DNA of 43,370 nucleotides. Origin: Vitreoscilla sp. (GTDB taxonomy: Bacteria; Pseudomonadota; Gammaproteobacteria; Burkholderiales; Burkholderiaceae_C). Where the stretch lies: the NCBI GenBank assembly GCA_018780145.1, contig JADMKA010000171.1, forward strand, positions 1 to 43,370. Reading direction: 5' to 3'. The notes under the pieces were generated by a model. The model saw nothing but the letters and a program-made list of their open reading frames with translations, ran no database searches and was not told the origin of the DNA. The position numbers and the translations under genes were made by a program. Shown here piece by piece: positions 4,506-25,096 of the stretch (position 1 is its first letter; every line of letters begins with the position of its first letter).

Positions 4506-5516
4506 CTACCCCAAGCGCACCAGCTGCTTGCCCAGGCTGCCCCCTTGCAGCAGGCTGATCAAGGCCGCTGGCGCCGCAGCCAGGCCGTCGGCGATGGTCT
4601 CGCGGTAGCGGATGCGGCCGGCGGCCACGTGGTGGCTCAGTTCATCGATCGCCGTGGACCAGCGCGGTGCATGGTCGCTGACGATGAAGCCCTGCATCTT
4701 GATGCGCTTGGTGATCAGCGGCAGCAGGCGCGGCAGGCCTTTCGGGTCTGGGTCGTTCACCTCGGCCATCGCGCCGCAGAGCGTGATGCGGGCAAAGTGG
4801 TTGGCGCGGCGGATCAGCGCGGCGAGGATGTCGCCGCCCACGTTGTCGAAGACGCAGTCCACGCCGCCGGGCAGGGCGCTCTTGAGTTGCGCGTCCAGTT
4901 CGCCGGCGCGGTAATCCACGCAGGCGTCGAAGCCCAGCTCGTCGGTGACGTGGCGGCACTTGGCGGGGCCGCCGGCCACGCCGACGACGCGGCAACCGCG
5001 CAGTTGGGCCAATTGGCCGGCCGCGCTGCCCACGGCGCCGGCTGCGGCGGTGACCACCACGGTCTCGCCGGGTTGGGGATCGCACAGGCCCAGCAGGCCG
5101 ACGTGGGCCGTCACGCCGGGCATGCCGGCCACGCCCAGGTAGGCTGAGAGGGGGATGCGCGTGGCGTCCACCTGGCGCAGTTGCCCGGCCTCGGCCAGGC
5201 CGTAGCGCTGCCAGCCCCCTGGGCCGACCACCGTGTCGCCCGGCTGGAACGCCGGGTGCTGTGATGCGATGACCTCGCCGGCCGTGTCGCCCACCATCAC
5301 CGCGCCCAGTGCCACCGGCTCGGCGTAGCTGCGCAGATCCAGCATGCGGCCGCGCATGTAGGGGTCCACCGACAGCCAGTCGTTGCGCACCAGCACCTGG
5401 CCGGGGCCGGGCTCGGGCATCGGCGCTTCCTCGAGCCGGAAGTTGCCTGCGCTCGGCATGCCATGGGCCTCCATGCCCGGCCGGCTGGCCAGCACGATGC
5501 GCTGGTTGGCAGTCAC
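4506..5516 (-). CDS. MDR-family NADP-dependent oxidoreductase (second copy)
   Basis: A 336-residue medium-chain dehydrogenase/reductase of the zinc-free CurA/PTGR-like group, which reduces C=C bonds of enones or 2-alkenals with NADPH. The nucleotide-binding motif VTAAAGAVGSAAGQ is followed by GVAGGPAKC, and VFDNVGG is also typical. No structural-zinc cysteine cluster is seen. The start is GTG at 5516, overlapping the TGA of the preceding Rieske oxygenase gene as GTGA. An in-frame extension upstream to 5915 is only a shadow of that gene. It is the last gene of the catabolic operon and is paralogous to the MDR at 11676-12692. Both directly follow a Rieske oxygenase gene, so each may act on the product of its neighbour (inference). 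Confidence 0.88.
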   Translation of the reverse strand: MTANQRIVLASRPGMEAHGMPSAGNFRLEEAPMPEPGPGQVLVRNDWLSVDPYMRGRMLDLRSYAEPVALGAVMVGDTAGEVIASQHPAFQPGDTVVGPGGWQRYGLAEAGQLRQVDATRIPLSAYLGVAGMPGVTAHVGLLGLCDPQPGETVVVTAAAGAVGSAAGQLAQLRGCRVVGVAGGPAKCRHVTDELGFDACVDYRAGELDAQLKSALPGGVDCVFDNVGGDILAALIRRANHFARITLCGAMAEVNDPDPKGLPRLLPLITKRIKMQGFIVSDHAPRWSTAIDELSHHVAAGRIRYRETIADGLAAAPAALISLLQGGSLGKQLVRLG

Positions 5517-6712
5517 GCCATGCCGTCCTGCACCAGTGGCGCCTGCTCCAGCGGGCGGCCCACGCCGCGGGCGAAGGCCTTGTGCATGTTGTGCAGCGCG
5601 GGCTCGTTGCGGCCAAAGGTGTTGAAGCTGCGCAGCTGGCCGTTCAGGCTCTTCATCACATTGGCGCTGATCCAGTAGTCTTCCTTGTCGACGATCTCGC
5701 GCACGAACTCGAAGTGCTGCTGGGGGCTGTTCACGCCCCAGCCGGCCTCGGGCTGGCTGCTGCGCCAGAAGCAGCGGTAGCGGGTGACGTGCTCGCCCAC
5801 CGCCTTGCCCGGGTAGAGCTGGAACAGCTCCACCGCCGCGGGCGACACCAGCAGCGAGATGTTGGGGTAGATGAAGTGCACGAGCTGGAACTCGTTGAAC
5901 AGATCGGCGCCCCACTCAGCCTCGGGCACGTCCTTCAGCCGCTTGATCGTCAGGTTGGGGAAGGCCACGCGGTGGTTGCGCTGGTCGGGCCCGAAGAAGT
6001 GCACCAGAGACAGGTTGCCGATGGAAACGTCGCCCAGCGAGGCCTTGTGCAGCGGCGTGAAGTGGTAGCCCTCGCAGAAGGTGTCGAGCGCGAGCTTCCA
6101 GTTCGCTTTCAGCGGCCATTCGTGGGTGCCCACGAGCGTGGTCTGGGCCAGGTTCCAGGCGGCGAACAGGGGCGCGGTGTCGCCCAGGATCTCGTCGATC
6201 GAAAAGCGCAGGTCGGGCTTCAGGCCGACGAAGATCAGGCCGTACTTCTCTTCGACAGGCAGGCGCACCAGGTTGTAGAACTCCTTCTCGATGGGGCCGA
6301 AGCTCTTCTCTTCGTACACATTACGCAGCTGGCCCTTCAGGTCGAAGCCCCAGGCGTGGTACGGGCAGGTGATGGAGGCGGCCGTGCCGCTGCCCTCTTT
6401 GAGCCGCGCCGAGCGGTGGGTGCAGGCGTTCAGAAAGGCATGCACCTGGCCGGCCTTGTCGCGCGTCAGCAGCACGGGCACGCCCAACTCGTCGAAGGTG
6501 CTGTAGCTGCCGGGCTCGGGCAGCTCTGAGCTGAAGCCCACGAGCTGCGGGTTGTCGCGGAAGATGGTCTGTTTCTCGCGCTCGAAGAGCTCGGGGTCGG
6601 TGTAGATGGCGGTGGGCACGCGCAGCACATCGGGCGCGCTGTCGGTGGTGCCGGCATCGATGTGGGCGAGCACGCTCTTCACGATGTCGACGTAGGCTTG
6701 TCTTTCGATCAT
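5513..6712 (-). CDS. Rieske non-heme iron oxygenase, alpha subunit (second copy)
   Basis: A 399-residue terminal oxygenase. The N-terminal Rieske [2Fe-2S] ligands are C97-x-H99 and C116-x2-H119. The C-terminal catalytic domain carries the mononuclear iron ligands H217 and H222 in EGYHFTPLH, with D210 placed as the electron-transfer acid. Such enzymes hydroxylate or demethylate rings and alkyl groups using electrons from a reductase, here probably the FNR/[2Fe-2S] protein encoded 20 bp upstream. No small beta subunit gene is present, so a homotrimeric KshA/VanA-like enzyme is likely. ATG at 6712 follows AAGGAG at good spacing. A longer in-frame start at 6892 overlaps the reductase gene and gives non-protein-like sequence. 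The substrate is unknown. Confidence 0.92.
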   Translation of the reverse strand: MIERQAYVDIVKSVLAHIDAGTTDSAPDVLRVPTAIYTDPELFEREKQTIFRDNPQLVGFSSELPEPGSYSTFDELGVPVLLTRDKAGQVHAFLNACTHRSARLKEGSGTAASITCPYHAWGFDLKGQLRNVYEEKSFGPIEKEFYNLVRLPVEEKYGLIFVGLKPDLRFSIDEILGDTAPLFAAWNLAQTTLVGTHEWPLKANWKLALDTFCEGYHFTPLHKASLGDVSIGNLSLVHFFGPDQRNHRVAFPNLTIKRLKDVPEAEWGADLFNEFQLVHFIYPNISLLVSPAAVELFQLYPGKAVGEHVTRYRCFWRSSQPEAGWGVNSPQQHFEFVREIVDKEDYWISANVMKSLNGQLRSFNTFGRNEPALHNMHKAFARGVGRPLEQAPLVQDGMA

Positions 6713-6732
6713 GTCTTGCTCCTTGTGGTCTT

Positions 6733-7707
6733 TCACAGGTCCAGCACCAGCCGCTCGCCGAGGGCGCGCGAGCAGCAGGGCGTGAATTGGTCGTTGCCGC
6801 GTTTCTCTTCGTCGGTGAGGTAGCTGTCGCGGTGGTCCGGCTCGCCTTCGAGCACGCGTGTCAGGCAGGTGCCGCACACGCCTTGCTCGCAAGACACGTC
6901 GATCGGCACGCCGTGGGCGCGCAGCGCCTGCACCACGGTCTGGCCCGCCGGCACGCTGAGCGTGCGCTGGCTGCGGGCGAGGTGCACCTCGAACGCGCGG
7001 TCACTGGCGGTGTGGGCGGCCGCGTCGGCAGTGGGCGCTGCAAAGCGCTCGAAGTGGATCTGGGCTTCGGGCCAGCCTTGCTGGCGGGCGGCGTTGCACA
7101 CCGCGTCGATGAAGCCACCGGGGCCGCACACGTAGACGTGGGTGGTGGCGTTGGGGGCGGCCAGCACAACGGGCAGGTCCAGCCGCTGTGCGGCGGGCCC
7201 GTCGTCGTGGTGAATGTGCACGTGCTCGGCAAACCGCGCAGCCTGGATGCGGGCGGTGAACGCGGTGCGGGCGGCCGAGCGGGTGCAGTAGTGCAGGGCG
7301 AAGTCGGCGCCGGCCTGGGCCAGGCGCTCGGCCATGCACAGCAGCGGCGTGATGCCGATGCCACCGGCCAGCAGCAGCGTGCGCCGTGCCGGCACCAGCG
7401 CAAAGTGGTTGCGCGGTGCGCCGATGCGGATCACCTGGCCCTCGGCCAGCTCGTCGTGCACGGCCACCGAGCCACCGCGCGAGCGCGGGTCGCGCAGCAC
7501 GCCGATCACGTAGCGGTGGGTTTCGCGCGGGTCGTTGCACAGCGAGTACTGGCGCACCAGTCCGCGTGGCAGTTGCACGTCGATGTGCGCGCCGGCGTCG
7601 AAGCGCGGCAGCGGCTGGTCGGCCAGCGGGGCCAGCTCCAACACCGCAGTGTCGGCCGCCTCGATGGCCTTGCGCACGATGCGCACCTGAAGGGTCGCGG
7701 TGTTCAT
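6733..7707 (-). CDS. Oxygenase reductase: flavin/NAD(P)H reductase with C-terminal [2Fe-2S] ferredoxin domain
   Basis: A 324-residue class IA-type (VanB/phthalate dioxygenase reductase-like) electron donor. The flavin-binding motif RQYSL lies near residue 54, the NAD-binding GGIGITPLL near 117, CGPGG near 196, and the plant-type ferredoxin cluster CEQGVCGTC with a later cysteine in TPCCSRA at the end. It passes electrons from NAD(P)H to Rieske oxygenases. It is the only such reductase in the window and may serve both oxygenases. ATG at 7707 overlaps the TGA of the CoA ligase gene (ATGA). The downstream Rieske gene begins 20 bp after the stop. Confidence 0.92.
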   Translation of the reverse strand: MNTATLQVRIVRKAIEAADTAVLELAPLADQPLPRFDAGAHIDVQLPRGLVRQYSLCNDPRETHRYVIGVLRDPRSRGGSVAVHDELAEGQVIRIGAPRNHFALVPARRTLLLAGGIGITPLLCMAERLAQAGADFALHYCTRSAARTAFTARIQAARFAEHVHIHHDDGPAAQRLDLPVVLAAPNATTHVYVCGPGGFIDAVCNAARQQGWPEAQIHFERFAAPTADAAAHTASDRAFEVHLARSQRTLSVPAGQTVVQALRAHGVPIDVSCEQGVCGTCLTRVLEGEPDHRDSYLTDEEKRGNDQFTPCCSRALGERLVLDL

Positions 7708-9356
7708 CGTGTCGGTGCGGCGAGCCGCTCTCGGATGTCCTTGCGCAGCTGATCCTTGCGCACCTTGCCGGATGCGGTGCGCGGCAGCGCCTCCACGATC
7801 ACCAGGCGCTCGGGGTACTTCTGCTTCGCCACGCCGGCTTCAGCCATGCTGGCCAGCATCTGCTCGGCGCTCAAGGCTGCGCCGGGCCGCAGCACGGCAT
7901 AGGCGCAGACGGTCTCGCCCAGCCGCTCGTGCGGCATCGCCACCACCGCGGCCTCGGCCACCGCGGGGTGGCGATGCAGGATGTCCTCGATCTCCTTGGC
8001 GCTGACCTTTTCGCCGCCGCGGTTGATCAAATCCTTCTTGCGGCCGGTGACGACGATGGCGCCCTCGGGTGTCAGGTGGCCCAGGTCGCCAGTGGCAAAG
8101 AAGCCCTGGGCGTCGAAACTCTCGGCCGACTGCGCCGGGTCGGCGTAGCCCAGCGCCAAGGCCGGGCCGCGCACGCAGATCTCGCCTTCCTGCCCGGGCG
8201 GCAGCGCGTGGCCGGCGTCGTCGTGGATGCGCACCTCGTAGTGCACCACCTCGCCATCGGTTTGCGCGGCCAGGTCCAGGCTGCCTTCGCGCACGAAACC
8301 GAGCGTGACCAGCGGCGCCTCGCTGGAGCCGTAGACGCGGAAGGCGCGGCCGTTCTGCAGCACCTGCGCCGCGCGGCGGATCAGCGCGGGGGGCACCTCG
8401 GCCCCGCCGCAGGCGAACAGGCGCAGCGACGGCAGGCCGGTGCCCTGGCGCTCGGCTTCGTCGAGCAACTCGTGCAGGAAGGGCGTGGCGCCCATGCTGG
8501 CGCTGACCTGCTCGCGCTCGATCAGGCCCACCGCGTCGGCGGCGCTCCAGCGCTCCATGAAGACGGTGCGCGTGCCGCAGACGAAGGGCAGCTCGATGCC
8601 GTAGCTGAAGCCGGTGACGTGTGTGACCGGCGAGGCCATCAGCACCGTGTCTCCCGGCCGCTGGCCCCAGTGGGAAAAGGCCTTGCGCAAGGTGACCGGG
8701 CCGGTGTTGTGGCTGTGCAGCACACCCTTGGGCCGGCCGGTGGTTCCCGAGGTGTAGAGCAGCAGCTTCACCGCGTTGGGGTCGACGCGCGGGCGCCCGG
8801 CCAGGCGGCGCTGCTCGCCTACCAAGGCTTCGTAGGTGTCGTCGAGCTGGGCGTTGCTAGCTCGCACGGTGGCCGCCAGGCGCAGGGCCGGCAGTTGGGG
8901 CGCGAGGCGCCGCATCATCGCGGCGTAGTCATGGCCGCGGTATTGGCCGGGGAAAAACGCCGCCTTGGCGCCGGAATCGGCCAGCATGTAGGCCACTTCG
9001 GCGTCGCGGTAGATCGGCACGATGGGCGCGACGACCAGGCCCAGCAGCGCGGCGGCCAGGTCGATCACCACCGCTTCGCGCCAGTTCGGCAGCTGGAAGG
9101 CGACCACGTCGCCGGTGGCGAGGCCGCGCACCTGCAAGGCGGCGGCGAGTGCCTGGGCCTCGCGCAACAGGTCGCCCACGCGGCAGGCCTCGCCCTCGAA
9201 CACATGGGTGACGCGGCCAGGCTCGTGCTCGGCGATGGTCTCGGCCAGCTCGGCCACGGTGCAGTCCAGCCAGGCGCCGGTGTCGCGGTAGCGCGCCACG
9301 GCGGCGGCCGTCTGCGGGTTGGGCCAGCGCGGGGCGGCAGGGGGTGGGCTGCTCAT
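7704..9356 (-). CDS. Acyl-CoA ligase (ANL superfamily)
   Basis: A 550-residue AMP-forming acid:CoA ligase. Signature motifs: the phosphate loop YTSGTTGRPKG, A5-like YGSSEAP, the TGDLG segment, hinge GRKKDLINRGG, and the C-terminal catalytic lysine in ASGKVRKDQ. It activates a carboxylic acid to its CoA thioester, the expected entry step for the acyl-CoA dehydrogenases beside it. The start at ATG 9356 overlaps the TGA of the preceding gene (ATGA). An ATG two codons earlier (9362) is equally possible, and neither has a clear ribosome site. The specific acid cannot be read from sequence. Steroid side-chain, terpenoid or aryl-alkanoic acids are reasonable given the neighbours. Confidence 0.92.
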   Translation of the reverse strand: MSSPPPAAPRWPNPQTAAAVARYRDTGAWLDCTVAELAETIAEHEPGRVTHVFEGEACRVGDLLREAQALAAALQVRGLATGDVVAFQLPNWREAVVIDLAAALLGLVVAPIVPIYRDAEVAYMLADSGAKAAFFPGQYRGHDYAAMMRRLAPQLPALRLAATVRASNAQLDDTYEALVGEQRRLAGRPRVDPNAVKLLLYTSGTTGRPKGVLHSHNTGPVTLRKAFSHWGQRPGDTVLMASPVTHVTGFSYGIELPFVCGTRTVFMERWSAADAVGLIEREQVSASMGATPFLHELLDEAERQGTGLPSLRLFACGGAEVPPALIRRAAQVLQNGRAFRVYGSSEAPLVTLGFVREGSLDLAAQTDGEVVHYEVRIHDDAGHALPPGQEGEICVRGPALALGYADPAQSAESFDAQGFFATGDLGHLTPEGAIVVTGRKKDLINRGGEKVSAKEIEDILHRHPAVAEAAVVAMPHERLGETVCAYAVLRPGAALSAEQMLASMAEAGVAKQKYPERLVIVEALPRTASGKVRKDQLRKDIRERLAAPTR

Positions 9357-10474
9357 CGGCATGTTGAAGCCATGGCAGGGGCACCCGAGGCCAGCGACAA
9401 GTCGGCGAAGCGCTGGAAGTGCGCGTCGCGGCTGCCGAACAAGGCGTTGATGACCATCACGCGGCGGAAGTGGTGGCTGACATCCAGCTCCTCGGTGATG
9501 CCGACGCCACCATGCAGCTGCACCGCCTCGTTGGCCACGCGGCGCGCGGCGGCGCCGATGTAGGCCCGCGCACCGCTGATCAGGCGGGCACGCTCCGGTG
9601 CCGGCTCGCCCATCGCACCCTGCGCGGCGCGCAGCAGCGCGCGCGACTCCTCCTGCAGCAGGAACAGGTCGACCATGCGGTGCTGCACGGCCTGGTTGCT
9701 GCCGATGGTCTTGCCGAACTGCTGGCGCACCTTGAGGTAGGCGAGCGTGGTGGCGATCAGGCTGCGGATCACGCCCAGGGCCTCGGCGCACAGCGCCACG
9801 GCGGCTTCGTCGTGGGCCTGGGCGATGGCCTGCGCCGCGTCACCCGCGTCCAGCCGCTCGACGGCTGCGCCATCGAAGTGCAGCCTGGCAGCCCCGCGGC
9901 CGTCCACCAGGCGGTAGGCGTGGCGGCGCACGCCGCGCGCCCCGGGCTCGACCAGGCACAGCACGGGGGCGCCACCGGCATCGGCGTCGCGGGCACTGAC
10001 GATCAGCCGGCCGGCCACGTCGCCGTGCAGCACATTGAGCTTGCCGCCGTGCAGTTGGCCGCCGCGCAGCGCGCAGCCGGTGGCCTCGGCGGGGTTGTCG
10101 TCGCAGGCGTAGGCGAGTTTCAGCGAACCATCGGCCAGGGCGGGCAGCAGCGCGGCCTGCTGCGCTGCGCTGCCGGCGGCCCGCACGAGACCGGTGCCGA
10201 GCACGGCGCTGGCCAGCAGCGGCTCCATCAGCAGCCGCTCGCCGACGAGCTCCATCACCGCACCGATGGCAGCCGAGTCGGCGTCGATGCCACCCTGGTC
10301 CTCGGGCAGGCGCAGCGCCAGCCAGCCGAACTCGGCGTAGTGCGACCAGGCCGGCGCGCTGAAGCCCTCTGCGCCTTCCAGCACCGCCGCGCGCTGGGCG
10401 AAGCCGTAGTGCTCGGCCGTGTAGCGCGCCACGCTGTCGCGCAGCATCTCGATGGTGTCTTGATCTGTGCTCAT
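9353..10474 (-). CDS. Acyl-CoA dehydrogenase, second (beta-like) subunit
   Basis: A 373-residue acyl-CoA dehydrogenase-fold protein. The C-terminal FAD-domain features are QQFGKTIGSNQAVQHRMVDL and LHGGVGITEE. The middle domain is degenerate, with no clear TEPxxGSD-type motif, and the usual catalytic-glutamate position is not evident. It directly follows a 402-residue dehydrogenase with ATGA overlaps on both sides. In steroid side-chain degradation such unequal pairs form alpha2beta2 enzymes (ChsE1-ChsE2, FadE26-FadE27, Scd1AB), with the FAD site shared between subunits. I infer the same here. Confidence 0.85.
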   Translation of the reverse strand: MSTDQDTIEMLRDSVARYTAEHYGFAQRAAVLEGAEGFSAPAWSHYAEFGWLALRLPEDQGGIDADSAAIGAVMELVGERLLMEPLLASAVLGTGLVRAAGSAAQQAALLPALADGSLKLAYACDDNPAEATGCALRGGQLHGGKLNVLHGDVAGRLIVSARDADAGGAPVLCLVEPGARGVRRHAYRLVDGRGAARLHFDGAAVERLDAGDAAQAIAQAHDEAAVALCAEALGVIRSLIATTLAYLKVRQQFGKTIGSNQAVQHRMVDLFLLQEESRALLRAAQGAMGEPAPERARLISGARAYIGAAARRVANEAVQLHGGVGITEELDVSHHFRRVMVINALFGSRDAHFQRFADLSLASGAPAMASTCR

Positions 10475-11679
10475 AGTCCGAGCACCGCCTTCGCCAGAAT
10501 GTTGCGCTGCACCTCGGACGAGCCGCCGAAGACGGTGGCGGCGCGGTTGTAGAGATGCTCCTTGACGATGCCGCCAGCGTCGTCGGGGCCGAGCGGCGGC
10601 AGGCCGGCGTGGTGCAGCGCGGCCGTGTCGTAGGCAACGCCGGCGGGGCCCAGCGTGTCGATCAGGGTCTCGGCGATGTCCTGGTACAGCTCCGTGCCAC
10701 GCACCTTGATCAGCGCGGCCTCGGCGCCGCTTTCCGCACCGTTCATCACCGCCTCCATCGCCTGGTAGGCGGCGGCTTCGAGGGCGAGAAAGCGCAGCTC
10801 GAACTCGCCCAGGCGCTGGCGCAGCGAAGGCTGATCGATCCAGGCGCCGCCGCCCGGTACGCAGGTCTCGGCGGCCAGGCGCTTCAGCCGTTGCAGCACG
10901 TGGTGGGCCATGCCGACGATGGCACCGGCGCTGCGCTCGTTGCGCAGCAGGAACTTGGCATAAGCCCAGCCCGCGCCCTCGGTGCCCACCAGGTTGTCCA
11001 CCGGCACGCGCACGTCGTCCAGCCAGACCTCGTTGACATGGTGGTAGCCGTCCATCGTGCGGATCGGCTTCACGGTGATGCCGGGGCTGCGCATGTCGAT
11101 GAGCAGGAAGGAGATGCCGTCTTGCGGGCGGCCGTCCCGGCTCGTTCTGACGAGGCAGAACAGCCAGTCGGCCCATTGCGCGTAGGTGGTCCAGACTTTC
11201 TGGCCGCTGACGCGGTAGTGCCCGCCGTCGCGCACGGCCTCGGTGCGCAGTGCAGCGAGGTCCGAGCCGGCGCCCGGCTCGGAATAGCCCTGGGCCCAGA
11301 AATCTTCGCTGCTGACGATGCGCGGCAGGAAGCGCCGCTTCTGCGCCTCGCTGCCGTAGGTGTAGATGACCGGCCCGACGTACTTCACGCCGAACGGGAT
11401 CACCCACGGGCAGCCGTGACGCGCCAGCTCGTCCTCGAAGGCAAAGCGCTCCAGCGCCGACCAGCCGGCGCCGCCGTAGGCCTGAGGCCAATGGCCGACC
11501 ACCCAGCCCTGCTGCTGCAGCAAGCGCATCCACTGCAGGTAGTCGGCCTTGTCCAGCACCTGGTGGCGTTCGGAGCGCTGCCGCAGCGACGCCGGCAACA
11601 CCTCTTCGCAGAAGCGGCGGATGTCCGCGCGCAGGCCCTGCGCACGCGAGCGGGCGGTGGCCACCGCGCTGGCCGTCAT
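10471..11679 (-). CDS. Acyl-CoA dehydrogenase, first (alpha-like) subunit
   Basis: A 402-residue acyl-CoA dehydrogenase. It has GYSEPGAGSDLAALRT (FAD/substrate loop), QKVWTTYAQWADW, RTMDGYHHVNEVWLDDVRVP, and the C-terminal FGGSSEVQRNIL. In medium-chain dehydrogenases the last motif reads YEGT with the catalytic Glu. Here that position is Gly, so the base must come from elsewhere, as in several ChsE/FadE-type enzymes. ATG at 11679 overlaps the TGA of the MDR gene (ATGA). It probably pairs with the next gene to desaturate a bulky CoA thioester (inference). Confidence 0.9.
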   Translation of the reverse strand: MTASAVATARSRAQGLRADIRRFCEEVLPASLRQRSERHQVLDKADYLQWMRLLQQQGWVVGHWPQAYGGAGWSALERFAFEDELARHGCPWVIPFGVKYVGPVIYTYGSEAQKRRFLPRIVSSEDFWAQGYSEPGAGSDLAALRTEAVRDGGHYRVSGQKVWTTYAQWADWLFCLVRTSRDGRPQDGISFLLIDMRSPGITVKPIRTMDGYHHVNEVWLDDVRVPVDNLVGTEGAGWAYAKFLLRNERSAGAIVGMAHHVLQRLKRLAAETCVPGGGAWIDQPSLRQRLGEFELRFLALEAAAYQAMEAVMNGAESGAEAALIKVRGTELYQDIAETLIDTLGPAGVAYDTAALHHAGLPPLGPDDAGGIVKEHLYNRAATVFGGSSEVQRNILAKAVLGL

Positions 11680-15660: not shown

Positions 15661-15673
15661 CACGTCGTTCGAC

Positions 15674-15691
15674 ACAAACGAAAGAGTTTGT
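15674..15691. promoter_or_regulatory. Operator copy 2: ACAAAC-GAAAGA-GTTTGT
   Basis: A perfect 6-bp inverted repeat with a 6-bp spacer, directly upstream of the likely DUF35 start (ATG 15660). Its arms match the copies at 20397-20414 (one mismatch there) and 25169-25186. The surrounding AT-rich stretch stands out in GC-rich DNA. Probable binding site of the TetR regulator encoded just upstream (inference). Confidence 0.7.
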
Positions 15692-15743
15692 TTGTTTGAA
15701 GATTCGACAAACGGCGTGCCTGCCGACGGACGCAGACTCCCGC

Positions 15744-17355: not shown

Positions 17356-18152
17356 CGCATGCTCGTGTGAAAGGGGTCGGCCAGCATGGCGGGCTGGGCA
17401 AGGGCATCGGCGACGAGGCGGCAGAAGCGCGCCGCGTCGGTGCCGTTGATGACGCGGTGGTCGTAGCTCAGCGACAGCGGCAGCATGGTGCGCGTCTGCA
17501 ACTGGCCGTCGACCAGCGCGAGCCGTTCGGTGCTGCGGGTGACGCCGAGGATGGCCACCTCCGGCGCGTTGATGATGGGCGTGAAGCCGGTGCCACCGAT
17601 GGCACCGAGCGAGCTGATCGTGAAGCAGCCGCCGGACATCTCGGCCATCGGCAGGCCGCGGCCCCGGGCGCGCTCGGCCTTGTCGGCGAGTTCGGCGGCC
17701 AGTTCGGCGAGCGACTTCTTGTCGCAATCGCGGATCACCGGTACCACCAAACCGCCGGGCACCTCCACCGCCACGCCGATGTGGAAGTAGCGTTTGAGGA
17801 CCAGCCTGTCGCCCCCAGGGGCGAGCGAGGCATTGAAGCGCGGCAGGGCCCGCAGCGCCTGCACCACGGCCTTGATCAGCAGGGGCACGAGGGTGAGCTT
17901 GATGTGCTGCTCGGCGCCCAGGCGCTTGCGCAGCGCGTCGGCCGCGTCGATGGGGGCCTCGTCGTGGTGGGTGACGTGCGGGATCTGCGCCCAGTTGCGG
18001 GCCATGAAGGCACCGACGAGCTGCTGGGTGCGGGTCAGCGCGATCGACTCCACCGGGCCGAACTGGGCATGGTCCATGACCGGCATCGGCGGCAGGTTGC
18101 CCGGCCAGGCCGAGACCGGCGGGGCGGTGGCGCGGGCCTCGTCGACTGCCAT
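17352..18152 (-). CDS. 2-oxoacid dehydrogenase-type acyltransferase (E2) catalytic domain without lipoyl domain
   Basis: A 266-residue protein that is almost only the E2 catalytic core, ending with SLSYDHRVINGTDAARF (catalytic His). Normal E2 proteins exceed 400 residues because they carry one or more N-terminal lipoyl domains and an E1/E3-binding domain. Here the lipoyl domain is a separate gene just upstream and no recognisable peripheral-subunit-binding domain remains. The start is ATG 18152, sharing its A with the lipoyl stop (TGATG). A GTG at 18155 is possible. It would transfer the acyl group from lipoyl-lysine to CoA. Confidence 0.9.
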   Translation of the reverse strand: MAVDEARATAPPVSAWPGNLPPMPVMDHAQFGPVESIALTRTQQLVGAFMARNWAQIPHVTHHDEAPIDAADALRKRLGAEQHIKLTLVPLLIKAVVQALRALPRFNASLAPGGDRLVLKRYFHIGVAVEVPGGLVVPVIRDCDKKSLAELAAELADKAERARGRGLPMAEMSGGCFTISSLGAIGGTGFTPIINAPEVAILGVTRSTERLALVDGQLQTRTMLPLSLSYDHRVINGTDAARFCRLVADALAQPAMLADPFHTSMR

Positions 18153-18394
18153 CACGCCGCCTCGGCGATTTCGCCGATCACCGTGCCGACTTCGTACACC
18201 TCGCCGGCGGCTTTGAGGATCTTCACCACGCCGGCCACCGGCGCGTCAATCTCCTGCACCGACTTTTCGCTTTCCAGCGCGTACAGCGGGTCTCCTTTGG
18301 CGACGCTGGCACCGTCGGCCACCATCCATTCGACGAGGTTGGCTTCGTTGACCGAAAAGCCGAGCTTGGGCAACAGGATGTCCATGGGGGTCAC
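18152..18394 (-). CDS. Free-standing lipoyl-domain protein
   Basis: An 80-residue single biotinyl/lipoyl domain. The lipoylation site is the Lys in ESEKSVQEI (K44 from GTG 18394, K41 from ATG 18385), and the hallmark glycine-containing turns are present (VADGAS, APVAGVV). GTG 18394 overlaps the E1-beta stop (GTGA). ATG 18385 gives a more typical N-terminus, MDILLPKLG. It probably acts as the mobile swinging arm between the E1 and E2 of this operon, much like GcvH in the glycine system (inference). Confidence 0.88.
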   Translation of the reverse strand: MTPMDILLPKLGFSVNEANLVEWMVADGASVAKGDPLYALESEKSVQEIDAPVAGVVKILKAAGEVYEVGTVIGEIAEAA

Positions 18395-19392
18395 TTCAGG
18401 GTGTCGAGCACGGCCGCCTGGATGCGCGCCGCGGTGGGGATGAAAGCCGATTCGAGCGACCTCGAGAAGGGCACCGGCGAGCGCGCCGCGCCGACGCGCC
18501 CCACCGGCGCCAGCAGGCGGCCGAACAGCTGCTGGTGCAGGCGGGTGGCGATCTCGCCGCCGACGCCGAAATCCACCTGCGCCTCGTGCGCCACCACGGC
18601 GCGCCGGGTCTTGCCGGCCGAGGCCACGAGAGTGGCCATGTCCAGCGGGGAGATCGTGCGCAGGTCGATCAGCTCGACCGAGACGCCGTCCTTGGCCAAC
18701 TGGTCGGCGGCGGCGCGGGCCTCGAGCATGGTGCGGCTGTAGCTGATCAGTGTCACGTCACTGCCTTCACGCACCACCTTGGCCTGGCCGAGCGGCACGC
18801 GCTGGCCGCGCTCGGGGGCGTCGCCGGGGGCGAAGTACAGCGGCAGGTTCTCGATGAAGACGCAGGGGTCGTCGTCGAAGATGCACGACAGCAGCAGGCC
18901 GTAGGCGTCGGCCGGGTTGGACGGGGCCACGACCTTCATGCCGGCGGTGTGGGCGAACCAGGCTTCCAGGTAGTCGGCATGCTGGCCGCCGGTGCCGAAG
19001 CCGGCGCCGGTGGCCGTGCGGATGGTCAGCGGCACATGGGTCTGGCCGCCGGTCATGAAGCGCAGCTTGGCCGCGTGGTTGACGATCTGGTCCATCGCCA
19101 CCGCGGTGAAGTTCATCAGCATGATCTCGGCGACCGGGCGCATGCCGCCCAGCGCCGCGCCGACGGCCGCACCCATGATGGCCTGCTCGGCAATCGGCGT
19201 GGATTTGACGCGTTCGGTGCCGTATTTGGCCGACAGGCCCGCGGTGCACTTGAAGACCCCGCCGCCCTGGGCGTCGGCGATGTCTTCGCCGAGCACCAGC
19301 ACGCTGGGGTCCTGGCCCATGGCGTCGTCCAGCGCGAGCTGGATGGCCTGGACCATGTTGATCTTCTTGGTGGTGGTGGCGGTCGCGTTCAT
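18391..19392 (-). CDS. Thiamine-dependent 2-oxoacid (or acetoin) dehydrogenase E1 beta subunit
   Basis: A 333-residue transketolase-like E1-beta. It contains LGEDIADAQGG, STPIAEQAIMG, TGAGFGTGGQHADYLEAWFAH and the C-terminal SPLDMATL/VVAHEA region. Together with the alpha subunit it decarboxylates a 2-oxo acid, or cleaves an acyloin in AcoAB relatives, and acylates lipoyl-lysine. ATG 19392 overlaps the E1-alpha stop (ATGA). A dihydrolipoamide dehydrogenase gene (E3) is not in the window and may be supplied from elsewhere. Confidence 0.92.
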   Translation of the reverse strand: MNATATTTKKINMVQAIQLALDDAMGQDPSVLVLGEDIADAQGGGVFKCTAGLSAKYGTERVKSTPIAEQAIMGAAVGAALGGMRPVAEIMLMNFTAVAMDQIVNHAAKLRFMTGGQTHVPLTIRTATGAGFGTGGQHADYLEAWFAHTAGMKVVAPSNPADAYGLLLSCIFDDDPCVFIENLPLYFAPGDAPERGQRVPLGQAKVVREGSDVTLISYSRTMLEARAAADQLAKDGVSVELIDLRTISPLDMATLVASAGKTRRAVVAHEAQVDFGVGGEIATRLHQQLFGRLLAPVGRVGAARSPVPFSRSLESAFIPTAARIQAAVLDTLK

Positions 19393-20375
19393 GCGTTCAT
19401 CTCCATGGCGAGCACGTCGATGCCCAGCTCGGCCACGTCGGGGAAGGGGCTGTCCAGGCCGAAGCGCACGGCCTCTTCGAATTGGGACTGGTTGGTCTGC
19501 TCGATGTCGGTGAGCGCGGCGTCGCTCGCATGGCCTTGGTCGATCAGCCAGGCGCGCAGGCGGGGCAGGGGGTCGGCCGCCATCGCCGAGGCCATCTCGT
19601 CCTTGGGGATGTAATGGCTGTCGTCGCCCAGCAGGTGGCCGCGGAAGCGGAAGGTCTGCGCATCGAGCAGCGTGGGGCCGCCGCCTTCGCGGGCGCGGTC
19701 GATCGCGGCCTTGGCGGCGGACCACATGGCCAGCGCGTCGTTGCCGTCGACCTCGACACCGGGCATGCCGTAGGCGATGGCCCGGTCGGCGATGGTGCGC
19801 GACGAGGTGCCGAGCTCGTACTTGGTGTGCTCGGCGTAGCGGTTGTTCTGGCAGACGAAGACGACCGGCAGCTTCCACACCGAGGCCAAGTTCAGCGCCT
19901 CATGGAAGGCGCCGATGTTGGTGGCACCGTCGCCGAAGTTGCACACGGTCACCTGGCCGGTCTTCTTCAGCTGCGCGGCCCAGGCCAGGCCGTTGGCGAT
20001 GGGCAGGCCGGAGCCGACCACGCCGGTGGTGACCGGCAGGCCCGAGGCCACATGGGTGATGTGCATCGGCCCGCCCTTGCCCTTGCAGGTGCCGGTGGCC
20101 TTGCCCATGAACTCGGCGACGAAGGGCTTGAGCGGGATGCCCTTGGCGAGCTGGTCGTGGATGCCGCGGTAGGTGGTGACCACGGTGTCGCTGGGCCGCA
20201 GGTTCACCGAGATCGCGGCGGGGATCAGCTCTTGCCCACGCGGCGAGTAGTACGGCGAGGCGATCTGCCCGGCCTTGATCAGCTCGATGAACCGATCATC
20301 GGCGCACTTGATCAGCGTGGCGATGCGGTAGATCTCGATCAGCGCGGCTCGGCTCGGGGTACGGGTCTCTGGCAT
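19389..20375 (-). CDS. Thiamine-dependent 2-oxoacid (or acetoin) dehydrogenase E1 alpha subunit
   Basis: A 328-residue E1-alpha. The thiamine diphosphate motif begins GDGATNIGAFHEALNLASVW and ends in NN about 30 residues after GDG. The GKGGPMH loop and YRGIHDQ are also present. Closest styles are pyruvate/acetoin dehydrogenase alpha chains. ATG 20375 has AAGGTGA about 7 nt upstream, and a GTG at 20384 is less likely. It is the first gene of block B. An operator of the TetR type lies 22-39 bp upstream. The substrate is unknown. It is not a classical acetoin system, because the E2 lacks the alpha/beta-hydrolase fusion common in that context. Confidence 0.92.
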   Translation of the reverse strand: MPETRTPSRAALIEIYRIATLIKCADDRFIELIKAGQIASPYYSPRGQELIPAAISVNLRPSDTVVTTYRGIHDQLAKGIPLKPFVAEFMGKATGTCKGKGGPMHITHVASGLPVTTGVVGSGLPIANGLAWAAQLKKTGQVTVCNFGDGATNIGAFHEALNLASVWKLPVVFVCQNNRYAEHTKYELGTSSRTIADRAIAYGMPGVEVDGNDALAMWSAAKAAIDRAREGGGPTLLDAQTFRFRGHLLGDDSHYIPKDEMASAMAADPLPRLRAWLIDQGHASDAALTDIEQTNQSQFEEAVRFGLDSPFPDVAELGIDVLAMEMNA

Positions 20376-20396
20376 GCCTGTCACCTTTTTGAAAAT

Positions 20397-20511: not shown

Positions 20512-21294
20512 TCAACTCCCCTCGTAGCGCGGCGTCCGTTTGGCCAGGAAGGCCTCGACCCCTTCGTGGAAATCCTGCGTGCCGACGCAGGCCGCGAAGG
20601 CGGCGCGCTCGGCCGCCAGCTGCTCGGCCAGGTCGTGCGACGAGGCTTCGCGCAGCAGGCGCTTGAGTTGGCCGAGCGCCACCGGGGCACCCGCGGCCAG
20701 GCGCATGGCGATCCGCATCGTCTCTTCGGCCAGCGTGTCCGCCGCCACCACGCGGTTCACCAGCCCGAGCTGCAGGGCCTGCGCGGCATCGAGCGTGTCG
20801 CCCAGCAGCGCGATCTCGAGTGCGCGCCGCAGGCCGACCAGCCGTGGCAGGTGCCAGGAGCCACCGAGGTCACAGCTCGCGCCGAGCCGGGCGTAGGCGA
20901 AGCTGAATCGTGTGCCCTCGGCGGCGATGGCCAGGTCGCAGGCCATCGCCAGGCTCATGCCGGCGCCCGCGACGGCGCCGTGCAGGCTGGCGATCACCGG
21001 GGCGCGCAGCCGCGCCAGGCATTGCAGGCCTTGGTGCAGTGGGTCGATCAAGGTCTCGGCAATGGTCTGCGGCGCGTCGCGGAACTGCGCAATGTCACCG
21101 CCCGCCATGAAGGCGCGGCCCTCGCCCGCGAGCACGACCACACGCACGCTGGTGTCGGCTTCGAGTGCGAGGCAGGCGTCGCGAAAGGCGAGGGCGAGGG
21201 CGCTGTCGGCGGCATTGAGCACCTCGGGCCGGTTCAGCCGCAGGGTGGCGATGGCGCCGTTGCGTTCGAGCAGCACGGGGGCGGGGGTGGTCAT
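20512..21294 (-). CDS. Enoyl-CoA hydratase/isomerase (crotonase) family protein
   Basis: A 260-residue crotonase. Oxyanion-hole motifs are AFMAGGDIAQF and HGAVAGAGMS. In rat enoyl-CoA hydratase two glutamates (E144, E164) activate water. Here the first lies in a segment reading FAYARLG, so that Glu seems lost, while a Glu equivalent to the second remains in ALEIALLG. It may therefore be an isomerase, a hydratase with altered chemistry or another crotonase. ATG 21294 overlaps the DUF6285 stop (ATGA). It is the last gene of block A, 97 bp before the operator of block B. Confidence 0.88.
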   Translation of the reverse strand: MTTPAPVLLERNGAIATLRLNRPEVLNAADSALALAFRDACLALEADTSVRVVVLAGEGRAFMAGGDIAQFRDAPQTIAETLIDPLHQGLQCLARLRAPVIASLHGAVAGAGMSLAMACDLAIAAEGTRFSFAYARLGASCDLGGSWHLPRLVGLRRALEIALLGDTLDAAQALQLGLVNRVVAADTLAEETMRIAMRLAAGAPVALGQLKRLLREASSHDLAEQLAAERAAFAACVGTQDFHEGVEAFLAKRTPRYEGS

Positions 21295-21719
21295 GGCGGC
21301 GGGGTCGCGGAGGAGGTGTGGGCCTTCGCCAGCAGCTTGGGGTTGCTCACTTCGAGCTGGCGCCGGTTGGTGGCTTGCAGGTGGGCCAGCACCTGGGCGC
21401 GCCAGGGGCCTTCGTCGGCGTCGCCTTCACGAATCCGCTCGCACAGCAGGCGGTTGGCGGTCAGCAGTCGATCGTGTACGGCGGCGCGATCCAGCGTCGC
21501 ATCGCACGGCGGAAAGCCGAGCAGAGAGCCCAAGCGGGCCAGTTCCTCGCGGTCGGCGCTGCCACCCTGGAGCAGCGCCCGCGAGGCAATGGCCAGCGCA
21601 TTGGCCATCATCAGCGCGGCGTGGCGTTGGTTGTCCGGCAGTGCCGGCAGCAGTTCGTCGCGCAACACGCTTCGTGCGGCGTCGAGCAAGGGCGCGCCGA
21701 TGAGGGCTTCGTTGATCAC
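21291..21719 (-). CDS. DUF6285-like protein of unknown function
   Basis: A 142-residue, mostly helical protein without signal peptide or membrane segments. It resembles the short DUF6285 proteins that are usually found between an APH-like kinase and an acyl-CoA dehydrogenase gene. I recognise it mainly from this position. The start is GTG 21719, overlapping the TGA of the kinase gene (GTGA). A role as accessory subunit or regulator of the kinase is only a guess. Confidence 0.75.
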   Translation of the reverse strand: MINEALIGAPLLDAARSVLRDELLPALPDNQRHAALMMANALAIASRALLQGGSADREELARLGSLLGFPPCDATLDRAAVHDRLLTANRLLCERIREGDADEGPWRAQVLAHLQATNRRQLEVSNPKLLAKAHTSSATPPP

Positions 21720-22725
21720 TTGGTCTCCGTCATCGCCAGGATCTCGTGCTCGAGCTCGGGCACGATGTGGCCGGTCAGTGCGAGCAGCAGCGAGCTTTCC
21801 TCGCCGCTGGCATGGCGCTCGGCCTGTTGCAGCGCGATGACAGCCCAGGTGACGTGGGCCATCAGCTCCCAGTAGGGCACCGCGCCGCGGTCCAGCGGTT
21901 GGCCGCTTGCTCGTTCATAGCCGCGGTAGAAGGCCTCGCGCGGGCCGATGCCGCCGGCCTCTCGCTCGACGGCGCCGAAGCGCCAGCACTTGGCGCAGAA
22001 CCAGCCGATGTCCTGCAACGGCTCGCCCCAGGCCGCGAATTCCCAGTCGAGGATGCCGGTCAGGCCCTGCGCGTCGACCAGGTAGTTGCCGGTGCGAAAG
22101 TCGCCGTGGCACAGCACGATGCTGCCGCGTGGCGGGGCATGGCGCTCCAGCCAGCGCAGCCCCCACTCGAGGGCGGGCTGGGGTGTGGCCAACGCGTCGA
22201 GGTGCTCCTGGCAGCGGCGCACGGTGCGCAGCGCGGGGGATTCGTCGCAGGCGGGCAGGAAGGCGAGATCGGCGCGCGGCGGGCGGATGGCGTGGATGCG
22301 GGCCAGCTCTTCGCCCAGTTGCTCGGCCAGGCGGCTGCGGTCGCCGCGCCAGCCGCTGTCCTTGACCAGCACGTGGCCGGCGGCGGTGCCGGCCACGCAG
22401 CGCATCAGGAAGAAGGGCCGGCCGATGACGGCGCGGTCTTCGCACAGCCACAACGGCTCGGGCACGGTGACGCCGGCGCGGAACGCGGCGCGCAGCAACG
22501 CAAACTCCTGCGGGCGGCCCAGGCTCACGGCCACGCCGGAGGGTGCATCGGTGCGCAGCACCAGCACCTGCAGGCCCGCATGCGGGCCGCCGTCGATCTG
22601 CACCTGCAGGCGCCAGTTCTGCTGGATGGCGCCGCCGGACAGGCGGGTGGCTTCGTGCACGGCGGCATCGCGGGCCCCGGCCTGTCCGGCGATGAAGCGC
22701 GCGATGGAGGTGCGGAAGTCGGTGT

Positions 22726-22729
<4 letters not shown>
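21716..22729 (-). CDS. APH-like phosphotransferase (ACAD10/11 kinase-type)
   Basis: A 337-residue aminoglycoside-phosphotransferase-fold kinase. The catalytic loop is LCHGDFRTGNYLV (HGD...N) and the metal-binding segment is ILDWEFAAWGEP (D). In mammalian ACAD10/ACAD11 such a kinase domain is fused to an acyl-CoA dehydrogenase and phosphorylates 4-hydroxyacyl-CoAs so that the phosphate can be eliminated. Here the same two activities are separate adjacent genes, overlapping by ATGA at 22729. A similar role on a hydroxyacyl-CoA of this pathway is a sound family-based inference, not proven. Confidence 0.9.
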
Positions 22730-23895
<1,166 letters not shown>

Positions 23896-23908
23896 CGAGG
23901 CCGGCCGG

Positions 23909-25096
23909 TCAGAGGCGCTCGAAGATCGCGGCGATGCCCTGCCCGCCGCCAATGCACATCGTGACCAGTGCGTAGCGGCCGCCGCTGCGTTGCAGCTCGT
24001 GGATGGCTTTCACGCTGATCAGCGCGCCGGTGGCACCCACCGGGTGGCCCAGCGAGATGCCGGAGCCGTTGGGGTTGACCTTGGCCGGGTCCAGATCCAG
24101 CTCGCGCATCACCGCGCAGGCCTGGGCGGCGAAGGCCTCGTTGGCTTCGATCACGTCCATCTGGTGGGCCCGCAGGCCGGCGCGCTGCAGGGCGGCGCGG
24201 GTGGCCGGCACCGGGCCCATGCCCATGTAGGCCGGTTCGACACCGGCGTGGGCATAGCCGACCAGGCGGGCCAGCGGCGTCAAGCCCCGGGCGCGCGCCG
24301 CGTCGGCATCGGCCAGCACCACCGCGGCGGCGCCATCGTTGATACCGGAGGCGTTGCCTGCGGTGACCAGGCCGTCTTTCTTGAAGGCGGGCTTCATGGC
24401 CGCGAGTTGCTCTGCCGTGACACCACCACGCACGTGCTCGTCGGTGTCGAACACCAGCGGTGCGCCGCGGCGTGACGGCAACTCGACGGGCACGATCTGC
24501 GAGGTGAAACGGCCGTCCGCGATGGCGCGGGCCGCGCGCTGCTGGCTTTCGAGCGCCAGTTCGTCCTGCATCGCGCGGGTGATGCCATGGCGCTCGGCCA
24601 CGTTCTCGGCCGTCATCCCCATGTGGAACTTCTGCCAGGGGTCGTGCAGGATGCCGGTCATGTAATCCAGCAACTGCGTGTCGCCCATGCGGATGCCCCA
24701 GCGGCCGGCGGTCATCAGGTAGGGGCCGCGGGTCATCGATTCGGCGCCGGCGCCGATGGCGAACTCGGTGTCGCCCAGTGCAATGGCCTGCGCCGCGCAG
24801 ACGATGGCCTGCAGCCCCGACCCGCAGAGCCGGTTCACGTTGTAGGCGGGGGTTTCGATCGGCACGCCGGCATCGACGGCGGCCACGCGGCCGAGGTAGG
24901 CGTCACCCGGCTCGGTGGGGATCACGTTGCCCATGACGACCTGGCCGATGAGCGAGGGCTCGGCACCGCTGTGCCGCAAGGCACCGCGCAGCGCGGTGGT
25001 GGCCAGCTGGCGCAAGGGAACCTCCTTGAGGGCGCCACCAAAACTTCCGATGGCGGTGCGGGCGGCACCCAGCACCACGATGTCACGCGTAGCCAT
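23909..25096 (-). CDS. Acetyl-CoA acetyltransferase (thiolase II family)
   Basis: A 395-residue true thiolase with all catalytic residues: nucleophile C91 in [11 protein letters not shown], His in [16 protein letters not shown], and the C-terminal Cys in CIGGGQG. It cleaves 3-oxoacyl-CoA to acetyl-CoA, or the reverse. ATG 25096 has CGGAGAA about 5 nt before it. It is the first gene of block A. The operator at 25169-25186 lies 73-90 bp upstream. Contrast it with the thiolase-like protein at 14108-15256, which lacks two of these residues. Confidence 0.94.

What the first reader, a model, noticed from the sequence alone, without database searches (positions are those of the whole stretch)
4506..25096. 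Large catabolic locus combining Rieske oxygenases, retro-aldolase pair and a 2-oxoacid dehydrogenase: possibly an undescribed pathway
The 22 genes on one strand contain everything for CoA activation, side-chain desaturation, retro-aldol cleavage, ring or alkyl hydroxylation and conversion of a keto acid or acyloin to acyl-CoA. Parts recall steroid/bile-acid side-chain degradation (heteromeric dehydrogenase, Ltp2/DUF35) and parts recall ibuprofen degradation (ligase, Rieske, IpfD/IpfE). I know of no characterised pathway that also includes an E1/E2/lipoyl complex, an APH kinase module and two Rieske/MDR pairs. No ring-cleavage extradiol dioxygenase or Rieske beta subunit is present, so a non-aromatic, isoprenoid or branched substrate is plausible.
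Basis: partly seen in the sequence, partly recalled or inferred. Interest (0 to 1): 0.7.

Follow-up and report, generated by a model that had tools for sequence, protein, structure and literature searches.

The report
Undescribed catabolic cluster feeding levulinate-type branch
A block of 21 bacterial genes, most of it kept in the same order in other soil and water bacteria, appears to break down an unidentified greasy, probably isoprenoid-like acid by a route not yet described, whose last steps look like those bacteria use for levulinic acid.

Summary
The locus is real: 21 (not 22) same-strand genes, 25096 down to 4506. Thirteen (E1α, E1β, lipoyl, E2, SDR, TetR, DUF35, thiolase-like, RO1, two ACADs, ligase, reductase) recur in the same order in 8 of 8 Pseudomonas/Halopseudomonas loci; 10 of 13 recur in a Polaromonas MAG. 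Looser versions occur in sphingomonads and actinobacteria. It is sporadic: the E1α is in 0 of 15 same-genus genomes searched. The 'unprecedented' APH module is explained: kinase, DUF6285 and ACAD_A are counterparts of LvaA/LvaB/LvaC (55/31/71% to a complete lva-type operon), and the SDR resembles LvaD (44%). The locus probably funnels a 4-oxo/4-hydroxyacyl-CoA to a BktB-like thiolase. The 'retro-aldolase' label fails a residue test: 20 of 20 clade members keep the thiolase Cys but carry QDT(D/E) and GEP, unlike SCP2 thiolases and unlike Sal/Ltp2. The host has no 3-oxosteroid 1-dehydrogenase match (E<=1e-30) and no MaoC hydratase was seen in the cluster, so classical steroid side-chain degradation is unlikely. 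Substrate unknown; a hydrophobic alicyclic/isoprenoid acid is the best guess. In the listings of ten literature searches I saw no matching pathway.

The parts
23909..25096 (-). beta-ketothiolase, BktB-like (395 aa)
   Evidence: NCBIfam PRK09051 subfamily 661 bits, cut-off 565 met; BktB equivalog 644 bits, cut-off 725 not met
22726..23895 (-). acyl-CoA dehydrogenase of LvaC type (ACAD_A, 389 aa)
   Evidence: 71% identical to the ACAD of a complete lva-type operon; ACAD11 ranks 3rd to 5th among its PDB matches
21716..22729 (-). APH-family kinase of LvaA type (337 aa)
   Evidence: Pfam APH; 55% to the lva-operon kinase
21291..21719 (-). DUF6285 protein, LvaB position (142 aa, GTG start)
   Evidence: Pfam PF19802 70 bits; 31% to the lva-operon DUF6285
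20512..21294 (-). enoyl-CoA hydratase/isomerase (260 aa)
   Evidence: Pfam ECH_1
19389..20384 (-). ThDP dehydrogenase E1 alpha (start 20384 or 20375)
   Evidence: Pfam E1_dh; 75-78% in eight Pseudomonas loci
18391..19392 (-). ThDP dehydrogenase E1 beta (333 aa)
   Evidence: Pfam Transket_pyr/Transketolase_C
18152..18394 (-). free-standing lipoyl domain protein (80 aa) with ESEKS lysine motif
   Evidence: Pfam Biotin_lipoyl, sequence; meaning of the motif recalled
17352..18155 (-). E2 acyltransferase, catalytic domain only (267 aa), DHRVING motif
   Evidence: Pfam 2-oxoacid_dh and no other domain, sequence; meaning of the motif recalled
16564..17355 (-). SDR, LvaD-like (263 aa)
   Evidence: 44% to the lva-operon SDR; the other 15 rows of that comparison (one gene listed twice) reach at most 34.5%
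15744..16484 (-). TetR-family regulator
   Evidence: Pfam TetR_N
15253..15747 (-). DUF35 protein, C4 zinc ribbon + OB fold (start may lie further in)
   Evidence: Pfam zf-ChsH2 and OB_ChsH2_C, sequence
14108..15256 (-). thiolase-fold partner of DUF35, QDTD/GEP clade (382 aa)
   Evidence: motifs in 20 of 20 clade members, window included
12689..14089 (-). Rieske oxygenase alpha subunit RO1 (466 aa)
   Evidence: Pfam Rieske + Ring_hydroxyl_A; E-x2-H-x4-H
11676..12692 (-). MDR reductase 1, CurA/PTGR-like (338 aa)
   Evidence: NCBIfam CurA model 292 bits, below cut-off 440
10471..11679 (-). heteromeric ACAD, large subunit (402 aa)
   Evidence: best NCBIfam match PimC 380 bits, below cut-off
9353..10474 (-). 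heteromeric ACAD, small subunit, no middle-domain match (373 aa)
   Evidence: best NCBIfam match PimD 225 bits, below cut-off; Pfam
7704..9356 (-). acyl-CoA ligase (550 aa)
   Evidence: Pfam AMP-binding; best named models medium-chain and cyclohexanecarboxylate ligase, below cut-offs
6733..7707 (-). Rieske-system FNR-type reductase with C-terminal [2Fe-2S]
   Evidence: Pfam Fer2, NAD_binding_1
5513..6712 (-). Rieske oxygenase alpha subunit RO2 (399 aa)
   Evidence: Pfam; E-x2-H-x4-H
4506..5516 (-). MDR reductase 2, CurA/PTGR-like (GTG start)
   Evidence: Pfam ADH_N_2, NCBIfam CurA 388 bits, below cut-off 440

Best explanation
The locus encodes an undescribed aerobic CoA-thioester pathway for a hydrophobic, probably alicyclic or isoprenoid carboxylic acid. 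Proposed order (inferred): the ligase makes the acyl-CoA; the two-subunit ACAD desaturates it; RO1 and RO2, fed by the reductase, hydroxylate sp3 carbons; the MDR reductases saturate enone intermediates; the DUF35/thiolase-like pair breaks a C-C bond beta to the thioester; the E1/lipoyl/E2 complex turns the resulting alpha-keto or acyloin fragment into an acyl-CoA. This yields a 4-oxoacyl-CoA (levulinyl-CoA-like), which the LvaD-like SDR reduces to the 4-hydroxyacyl-CoA. The LvaA/LvaB/LvaC-type proteins phosphorylate the 4-hydroxyl and eliminate phosphate to give the enoyl-CoA, and ECH plus the BktB-like thiolase finish it to acetyl-CoA and propionyl-CoA (or a homologue). Shown by sequence: gene identities, conserved order, lva-type relationship, catalytic motifs. 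Inferred: reaction order, substrate class, what E1 and the thiolase-like enzyme act on.
For: Thirteen-gene core colinear in 8 of 8 Pseudomonas/Halopseudomonas loci. A complete lva-type operon in another Pseudomonadaceae genome (L142: PrpR/sigma-54 regulator, APH, DUF6285, ACAD, SDR, ligase, DUF485, SSF symporter) has APH/DUF6285/ACAD/SDR 55/31/71/44% identical to the window's; lva chemistry from passages of PMC11342911 and PMC6692424. BktB-like thiolase over the subfamily cut-off. Hydrophobic substrate: DUF1329, YCF48 and RND/MMPL-like genes near the cluster in P. profundi and P. fluorescens PS691 (RND score below its cut-off) and MlaE and MlaD/Mce proteins beside it in Mycolicibacter. DUF35 + thiolase-like + ACAD + E1α/E1β/E2 also sit in a row in the 4 sphingomonad plasmid regions that I opened at the thiolase-like gene, of 10 sphingomonad records listed.
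Against: No step is shown by experiment. The lva-type block has the opposite orientation in Pseudomonas, and the Polaromonas MAG has no DUF6285 match and no APH match above 30%, so the block could be a neighbour only. No 3-hydroxyacyl-CoA dehydrogenase or lipoamide dehydrogenase lies in the cluster. PMC11342911 gives 56-62% identity between LvaC and the ACAD10/11 domains, yet ACAD_A matches ACAD11 only at 185-194 bits over about 320 residues; the P. putida LvaC itself could not be fetched. Of the 22 loci that hold the thiolase-like gene, 14 show an E1 and 8 do not (one of the 8 is a 3-kb fragment); in the 4 sphingomonad regions the E1 proteins are only 33-41% identical to the window's, so the association there may be independent. 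The same kind of E1 set (60% E1α) also occurs without the QDT-type thiolase-like gene in the regions opened.
Confidence: 0.5

Rival explanations
1. Steroid or bile-acid side-chain degradation variant: ligase, heteromeric ACAD and Ltp2/Sal-type aldolase remove a C3 or C5 side chain.
For: Heteromeric ACAD plus DUF35/thiolase-fold pair; flavoproteins of the KstD superfamily in two Pseudomonas clusters; Mce genes with a Mce4_CUP1 match in Mycolicibacter; KstD-model matches, mostly under the cut-off, in 7 of 8 genomes that carry the cluster or its relatives.
Against: Catalytic motif QDT(D/E)/GEP with Cys kept, not YDHF/YDCY; no MaoC hydratase among the 20 Pfam-scanned proteins; no match to the 3-oxosteroid 1-dehydrogenase model in the host at E<=1e-30; the bile-acid review PMC8399759 has no occurrence of 'acetoin' or 'dihydrolipo'.
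Confidence: 0.12
2. Aryl-alkanoate (ibuprofen-like) deacylation: ligase, Rieske dioxygenation ipso to the side chain, aldolytic release of an acyl-CoA and a catechol.
For: Ligase + Rieske + DUF35/thiolase-fold set recalls ipf genes (recalled; PMC11347016 seen in listings only).
Against: No Rieske beta subunit and no extradiol dioxygenase among the 20 Pfam-scanned proteins; RO1 and RO2 carry Glu at a place where dioxygenases usually carry Asp (role recalled); the two-subunit ACAD and lva-type block have no role in that scheme. Biphenyl dioxygenase is nevertheless the top fold match of the RO1 model.
Confidence: 0.08
3. Two or three unrelated pathways side by side: a levulinate-type/4-hydroxy-acid operon (thiolase to ECH) next to the E1/Rieske cluster.
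For: The lva-type block lies in opposite orientation in Pseudomonas, exists on its own (L129, L143), and DUF6285 is missing from the Polaromonas MAG.
Against: ECH and ACAD_A lie near the core in 8 of 8 Pseudomonas loci, and APH + DUF6285 in the 6 of 8 whose surroundings I could check (L009-L012, L014, L018); the surroundings of L016 and L017 were not searched. The LvaD-like SDR lies inside the core operon.
Confidence: 0.25

Closest known systems
lva operon (lvaABCDEFG, levulinate degradation, Pseudomonas putida KT2440)
   Same: Kinase + small partner + ACAD of LvaA/B/C type, LvaD-like SDR, a CoA ligase, feeding 3-hydroxyacyl-CoA to beta-oxidation
   Different: No LvaF/LvaG transporter and no PrpR/sigma-54 regulator among the 20 Pfam-scanned proteins, ligase only 30% to LvaE-like; embedded in a Rieske/E1/E2/thiolase-like cluster
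Bile-acid/sterol side-chain aldolases Sal-Shy and Ltp2-ChsH2 (DUF35)
   Same: Thiolase fold paired with DUF35; heteromeric ACAD nearby
   Different: Nucleophilic Cys kept, QDTD for YDHF/YDCY, GEP; no MaoC hydratase seen
SCP2-type thiolases and benzoylsuccinyl-CoA thiolase BbsAB
   Same: Best PDB sequence and fold matches (6hsj, 7pxp); nucleophilic Cys aligned
   Different: HDCF becomes QDTD and GHP becomes GEP
Acetoin/pyruvate/branched-chain 2-oxoacid dehydrogenase complexes
   Same: E1α, E1β, lipoyl and E2 catalytic proteins
   Different: Lipoyl and E2 catalytic domains are separate proteins; scores lie below every curated cut-off listed for these four proteins
Alpha-only Rieske monooxygenases GbcA and CntA
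   Same: GbcA is the best NCBIfam model for RO1 and RO2; CntA among best folds for RO1; E-x2-H-x4-H
   Different: About 100 bits against a cut-off of 670; substrate unknown; biphenyl dioxygenase ranks first by fold

Membership tests
lva-type 4-hydroxyacyl-CoA module | LvaA-type kinase, LvaB-position DUF6285 and LvaC-type ACAD as neighbours | tested here: met
   55/31/71% to the complete lva-type operon in L142; in the window the transcription order is ACAD-APH-DUF6285, in L142 APH-DUF6285-ACAD
lva levulinate operon itself | LvaE ligase, LvaF/LvaG (DUF485/SSF) transporter and sigma-54 LvaR adjacent | tested here: not met
   Ligase 30%; no SSF, DUF485 or PrpR_N among 20 Pfam-scanned proteins
Sal/Ltp2 steroid side-chain aldolase | YD(H/C)(F/Y) catalytic motif and no thiolase nucleophile Cys | tested here: not met
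   QDTD and Cys79 in the window; 20 of 20 clade members alike; motif definition from passages of PMC12329534 and PMC8399759
Sal/Ltp2 steroid side-chain aldolase | DUF35 partner | tested here: met
   zf-ChsH2 + OB_ChsH2_C, C4 zinc ribbon
Steroid side-chain degradation cluster | MaoC-type hydratase | tested here: not met
   none among 20 Pfam-scanned proteins
Classical aerobic steroid degrader | 3-ketosteroid delta-1-dehydrogenase in the host | tested here: not met
   0 matches to NF005882 at E<=1e-30 in the host assembly (96.5% complete)
SCP2 thiolase | Cys, HDCF and GHP catalytic residues | tested here: not met
   Cys met, HDCF and GHP not met
Ibuprofen ipf type | Rieske alpha + beta oxygenase (recalled) | tested here: not met
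   no beta-subunit family among 20 Pfam-scanned proteins
ThDP/lipoyl 2-oxoacid or acyloin dehydrogenase complex | E1α, E1β, lipoylated carrier, E2 catalytic domain | tested here: met
ThDP/lipoyl 2-oxoacid or acyloin dehydrogenase complex | Working E3 partner, and substrate | not testable with these tools
   no E3 in the 21 genes; whether a housekeeping E3 serves was not searched, and what E1 acts on needs the bench

The most novel reading that the evidence does not exclude
The core module is a new way to cut an alicyclic or isoprenoid skeleton without Baeyer-Villiger or extradiol oxygenases. Rieske monooxygenation makes a vicinal keto/hydroxyl pair, a third mechanistic class of DUF35-thiolase-fold enzyme (Cys + QDTD + GEP) cleaves next to it, and a ThDP E1 with detached lipoyl carrier and E2 core splits the resulting 1,2-diketone or acyloin straight to an acyl-CoA. 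The product enters an lva-type 4-hydroxyacyl-CoA branch.
Probability: 0.3. Interest if true: 0.75.

Novelty: new variant of a known kind. Interest (0 to 1): 0.55.

Why it matters
The thiolase-like/DUF35 clade occurs in alpha-, beta- and gammaproteobacteria and in actinobacteria, and I saw no characterised member in the papers searched. Learning its reaction would name many 'thiolase family/OB-fold' genes and may give a new C-C bond-cutting enzyme. The link to lva-type chemistry suggests that the kinase-ACAD route for 4-hydroxyacyl-CoA, known for levulinate and for mammalian ACAD10/11, also serves the lower half of a larger natural-product pathway. It gives a concrete prediction (4-oxo/4-hydroxyacyl-CoA intermediates) that can be tested in cultured Pseudomonas.

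Tried and rejected
A structure model of the thiolase-like protein to inspect the active site: mean pLDDT 62, with residues 282-303 and 310-332 below 50, so no geometry was read from it; its fold search only confirms the thiolase superfamily. A VIA-align second look was not available. E1 comparison with pyruvate and branched-chain E1 chains could not tell a 2-oxoacid from an acyloin substrate; no acetoin E1 appeared among those matches. Abscisic acid, tomatine, DUF1302/DUF1329 and N. aromaticivorans literature leads showed nothing on this cluster in the listings. DUF6285 occurs in no held paper. P. jinjuensis contig C7 (L128) looked like an lva operon, but its ACAD is only 27% to ACAD_A and gave no PDB match at E<=1e-70, so it was not used as the reference. 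The 'no paper' statement rests on the listings; most subscription papers are not held, and I did not see the original lva paper (Rand et al. 2017, known here through). Papers: passages read of PMC8399759, PMC12329534, PMC11342911 and PMC6692424; all others seen as listings or abstract starts. A promoter/terminator scan of 20300-20600 found nothing.


Full report
Observation. The minus strand from 25096 to 4506 carries 21 closely packed genes. NCBIfam and Pfam scans give, in order of transcription: BktB-like thiolase; ACAD_A; APH kinase; DUF6285; enoyl-CoA hydratase; E1α; E1β; lipoyl protein; E2 catalytic domain; SDR; TetR; DUF35; thiolase-like; RO1; MDR1; ACAD large; ACAD small; ligase; reductase; RO2; MDR2. 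No Rieske beta subunit, extradiol dioxygenase or MaoC hydratase family appeared among the 20 proteins scanned with Pfam (the BktB-like thiolase was scanned with NCBIfam only).

Conservation. A scan of the species-genome collection with RO1 found 221 relatives, of which the best 80 were kept. Ten match at 65-68%, the next at 48% or less. Of those ten, eight Pseudomonas/Halopseudomonas loci carry all 13 core proteins (E1α, E1β, lipoyl, E2, SDR, TetR, DUF35, thiolase-like, RO1, ACAD large, ACAD small, ligase, reductase) at 43-82% identity and in the window's order. The ninth, a Polaromonas MAG cut at a contig end, has 10 of the 13 plus MDR1 at 66%; E1α lies beyond the contig end, TetR and reductase were not found. 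The tenth is a 3-kb fragment. Among the other 70, L033 (Mycolicibacter) has E1α 62%, E1β 56%, DUF35 43% and thiolase-like 58%; L078 (Acidimicrobiales) has DUF35 44% and thiolase-like 63%; six more (L023, L025, L032, L052, L053, L059) have E1 genes at 30-47% but no thiolase-like match. In the plasmid collection, the thiolase-like clade was seen in 19 of the 25 records listed at 54.9-62% identity, with the next at 36.7% or less. I opened 4 of the 10 sphingomonad records at that gene (pNL2 of N. aromaticivorans, Novosphingobium sp. ES2-1, N. capsulatum, Sphingobium sp. TomTYG65): 4 of 4 show DUF35, thiolase-like, ACAD, E1α, E1β and full-length E2 in a row, but their E1 proteins are only 33-41% identical to the window's. 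Two Rhodococcus plasmid regions have DUF35, thiolase-like, ACADs, a phosphotransferase-family gene and a ligase but no listed E1 (PLSDB gene tables are incomplete), and BLAST found none there.

Sporadic distribution. The thiolase-like gene was found in 1 of 369 genomes of the class at E<=1e-120 (the host itself) and in 3 of 299 of the family at E<=1e-60 (host included); one of these three is an SCP2-type thiolase by its motif (L091). The E1α was found in 2 of 60 relatives at E<=1e-90, host included, and in 0 of the 15 other same-genus genomes. This points to horizontal acquisition.

The APH module. In Pseudomonadaceae genome G726 (L142), a divergent PrpR_N/sigma-54 regulator faces APH, DUF6285, ACAD, SDR, AMP ligase, DUF485 and SSF symporter genes. 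This is the composition and order described for the lva operon in passages of PMC6692424. The window's APH, DUF6285, ACAD_A and SDR are 55, 31, 71 and 44% identical to these; the other 15 rows of the SDR comparison (one gene listed twice) reach at most 34.5%. By passages of PMC11342911, LvaA phosphorylates 4-hydroxyacyl-CoA and LvaC eliminates phosphate to the enoyl-CoA. The P. citronellolis levulinate cluster has a histidine phosphatase gene, and so have the blocks of P. linyingensis and P. fluorescens PS691. The block therefore most likely converts a 4-hydroxyacyl-CoA for thiolysis by the BktB-like enzyme. One mismatch remains open: the published identity of LvaC to ACAD10/11 (56-62%) looks higher than ACAD_A's match to ACAD11 (185-194 bits).

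The thiolase-like enzyme. SCP2 thiolases have Cys, HDCF and GHP; Ltp2 has YDHF, Sal has YDCY with Gly in place of the nucleophilic Cys. In an alignment of the 27 distinct sequences (window included) that I then held with an aligned stretch of 300 residues or more, 20 of 20 with at least 53.6% identity have Cys, QDT(D/E) and GEP, and 17 of 20 have the final His. The other 7, at 38.3% or less, split into 2 with Cys/HDCF/GHP and 5 without Cys and with YD(A/C/S)F. The clade is thus neither. Loss of the GHP His with retention of the Cys suggests an altered thiolase-type or other C-C cleavage; the mechanism is inferred. The AlphaFold model was too weak for geometry. By fold its best matches are SCP2 thiolase and BbsAB; 6ok1 (Ltp2) ranks 18th and 9myr (Sal) 28th.

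Rieske enzymes. Both have the Rieske motif and E-x2-H-x4-H. All 101 RO1-matching stretches examined in the loci held at that time contain a Glu version of the latter; two have a further Asp match elsewhere and one lacks a recognisable Rieske motif. Glu in place of Asp is recalled as a feature of alpha-only monooxygenases such as CntA. CntA is among the best folds for RO1 (model pLDDT 83.5), but biphenyl dioxygenase ranks first. This favours sp3 hydroxylation without proving it.

Substrate. In P. profundi the core continues into further Rieske oxygenases, SnoaL_4, VOC, ThuA, GST and FAD_binding_2 proteins and DUF1329, YCF48 and RND-type genes, with the same genes by BLAST in P. fluorescens PS691. 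In Mycolicibacter, MlaE and MlaD/Mce proteins and an RPE65-family (carotenoid/lignostilbene cleavage) gene flank it. These indicate a hydrophobic, partly alicyclic substrate. The host has no match to the 3-oxosteroid 1-dehydrogenase model at E<=1e-30; the other 7 of the 8 genomes searched do, only Mycolicibacter over the cut-off. A 4-oxoacyl-CoA product fits an isoprene-derived methyl-ketone fragment; this is inference.

Verdict. A conserved, laterally spread catabolic unit, not seen as a whole in the papers I could search, made of known kinds of enzymes plus one uncharacterised thiolase-fold clade, and probably ending in lva-type chemistry.

Noticed in passing
window 1-3780, minus strand: Open-ended 1260-aa AAA_23/SMC-like ATPase, in a stretch of lower G+C (61-64%) than the cluster, with weak PADLOC matches to LmuB/PbeC-type ATPases; possibly a defence or DNA-repair gene.
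   Followed up: partly
L006 5886-10378 (host contig C273): Second LvaC-type ACAD (74-75% to ACAD_A) between a ThDP enzyme (TPP_enzyme_N/M/C) and an APH-family gene at 27-28%; the window's is the only DUF6285 found in the host assembly. A second, different kinase-ACAD module beside a ThDP enzyme.
   Followed up: partly
L129 7814-11181, L143 7793-11174: Stand-alone APH-DUF6285-histidine phosphatase-ACAD modules in Pseudomonadaceae, like the P. citronellolis levulinate cluster in which no LvaB homologue was reported.
   Followed up: partly
L146 19980-22973 and L151 14980-17990: The same kind of E1α-E1β-free lipoyl-E2 set beside MMPL, YCF48, DUF1302 and DUF1329 genes, but with CoA ester lyase, MaoC and KAS III-like genes and no QDT-type thiolase-like pair in the region shown: the E1 set seems to serve more than one pathway.
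   Followed up: no
G671 contigs C38, C23, C33; G672 contigs C8, C17: Two actinobacterial genomes carry three and two members of the QDT/GEP thiolase-like clade, in different gene contexts.
   Followed up: no
window 25253-26307, minus strand: ExbB and ExbD genes directly upstream of the cluster's first gene; whether they power uptake of its substrate was not tested.
   Followed up: no
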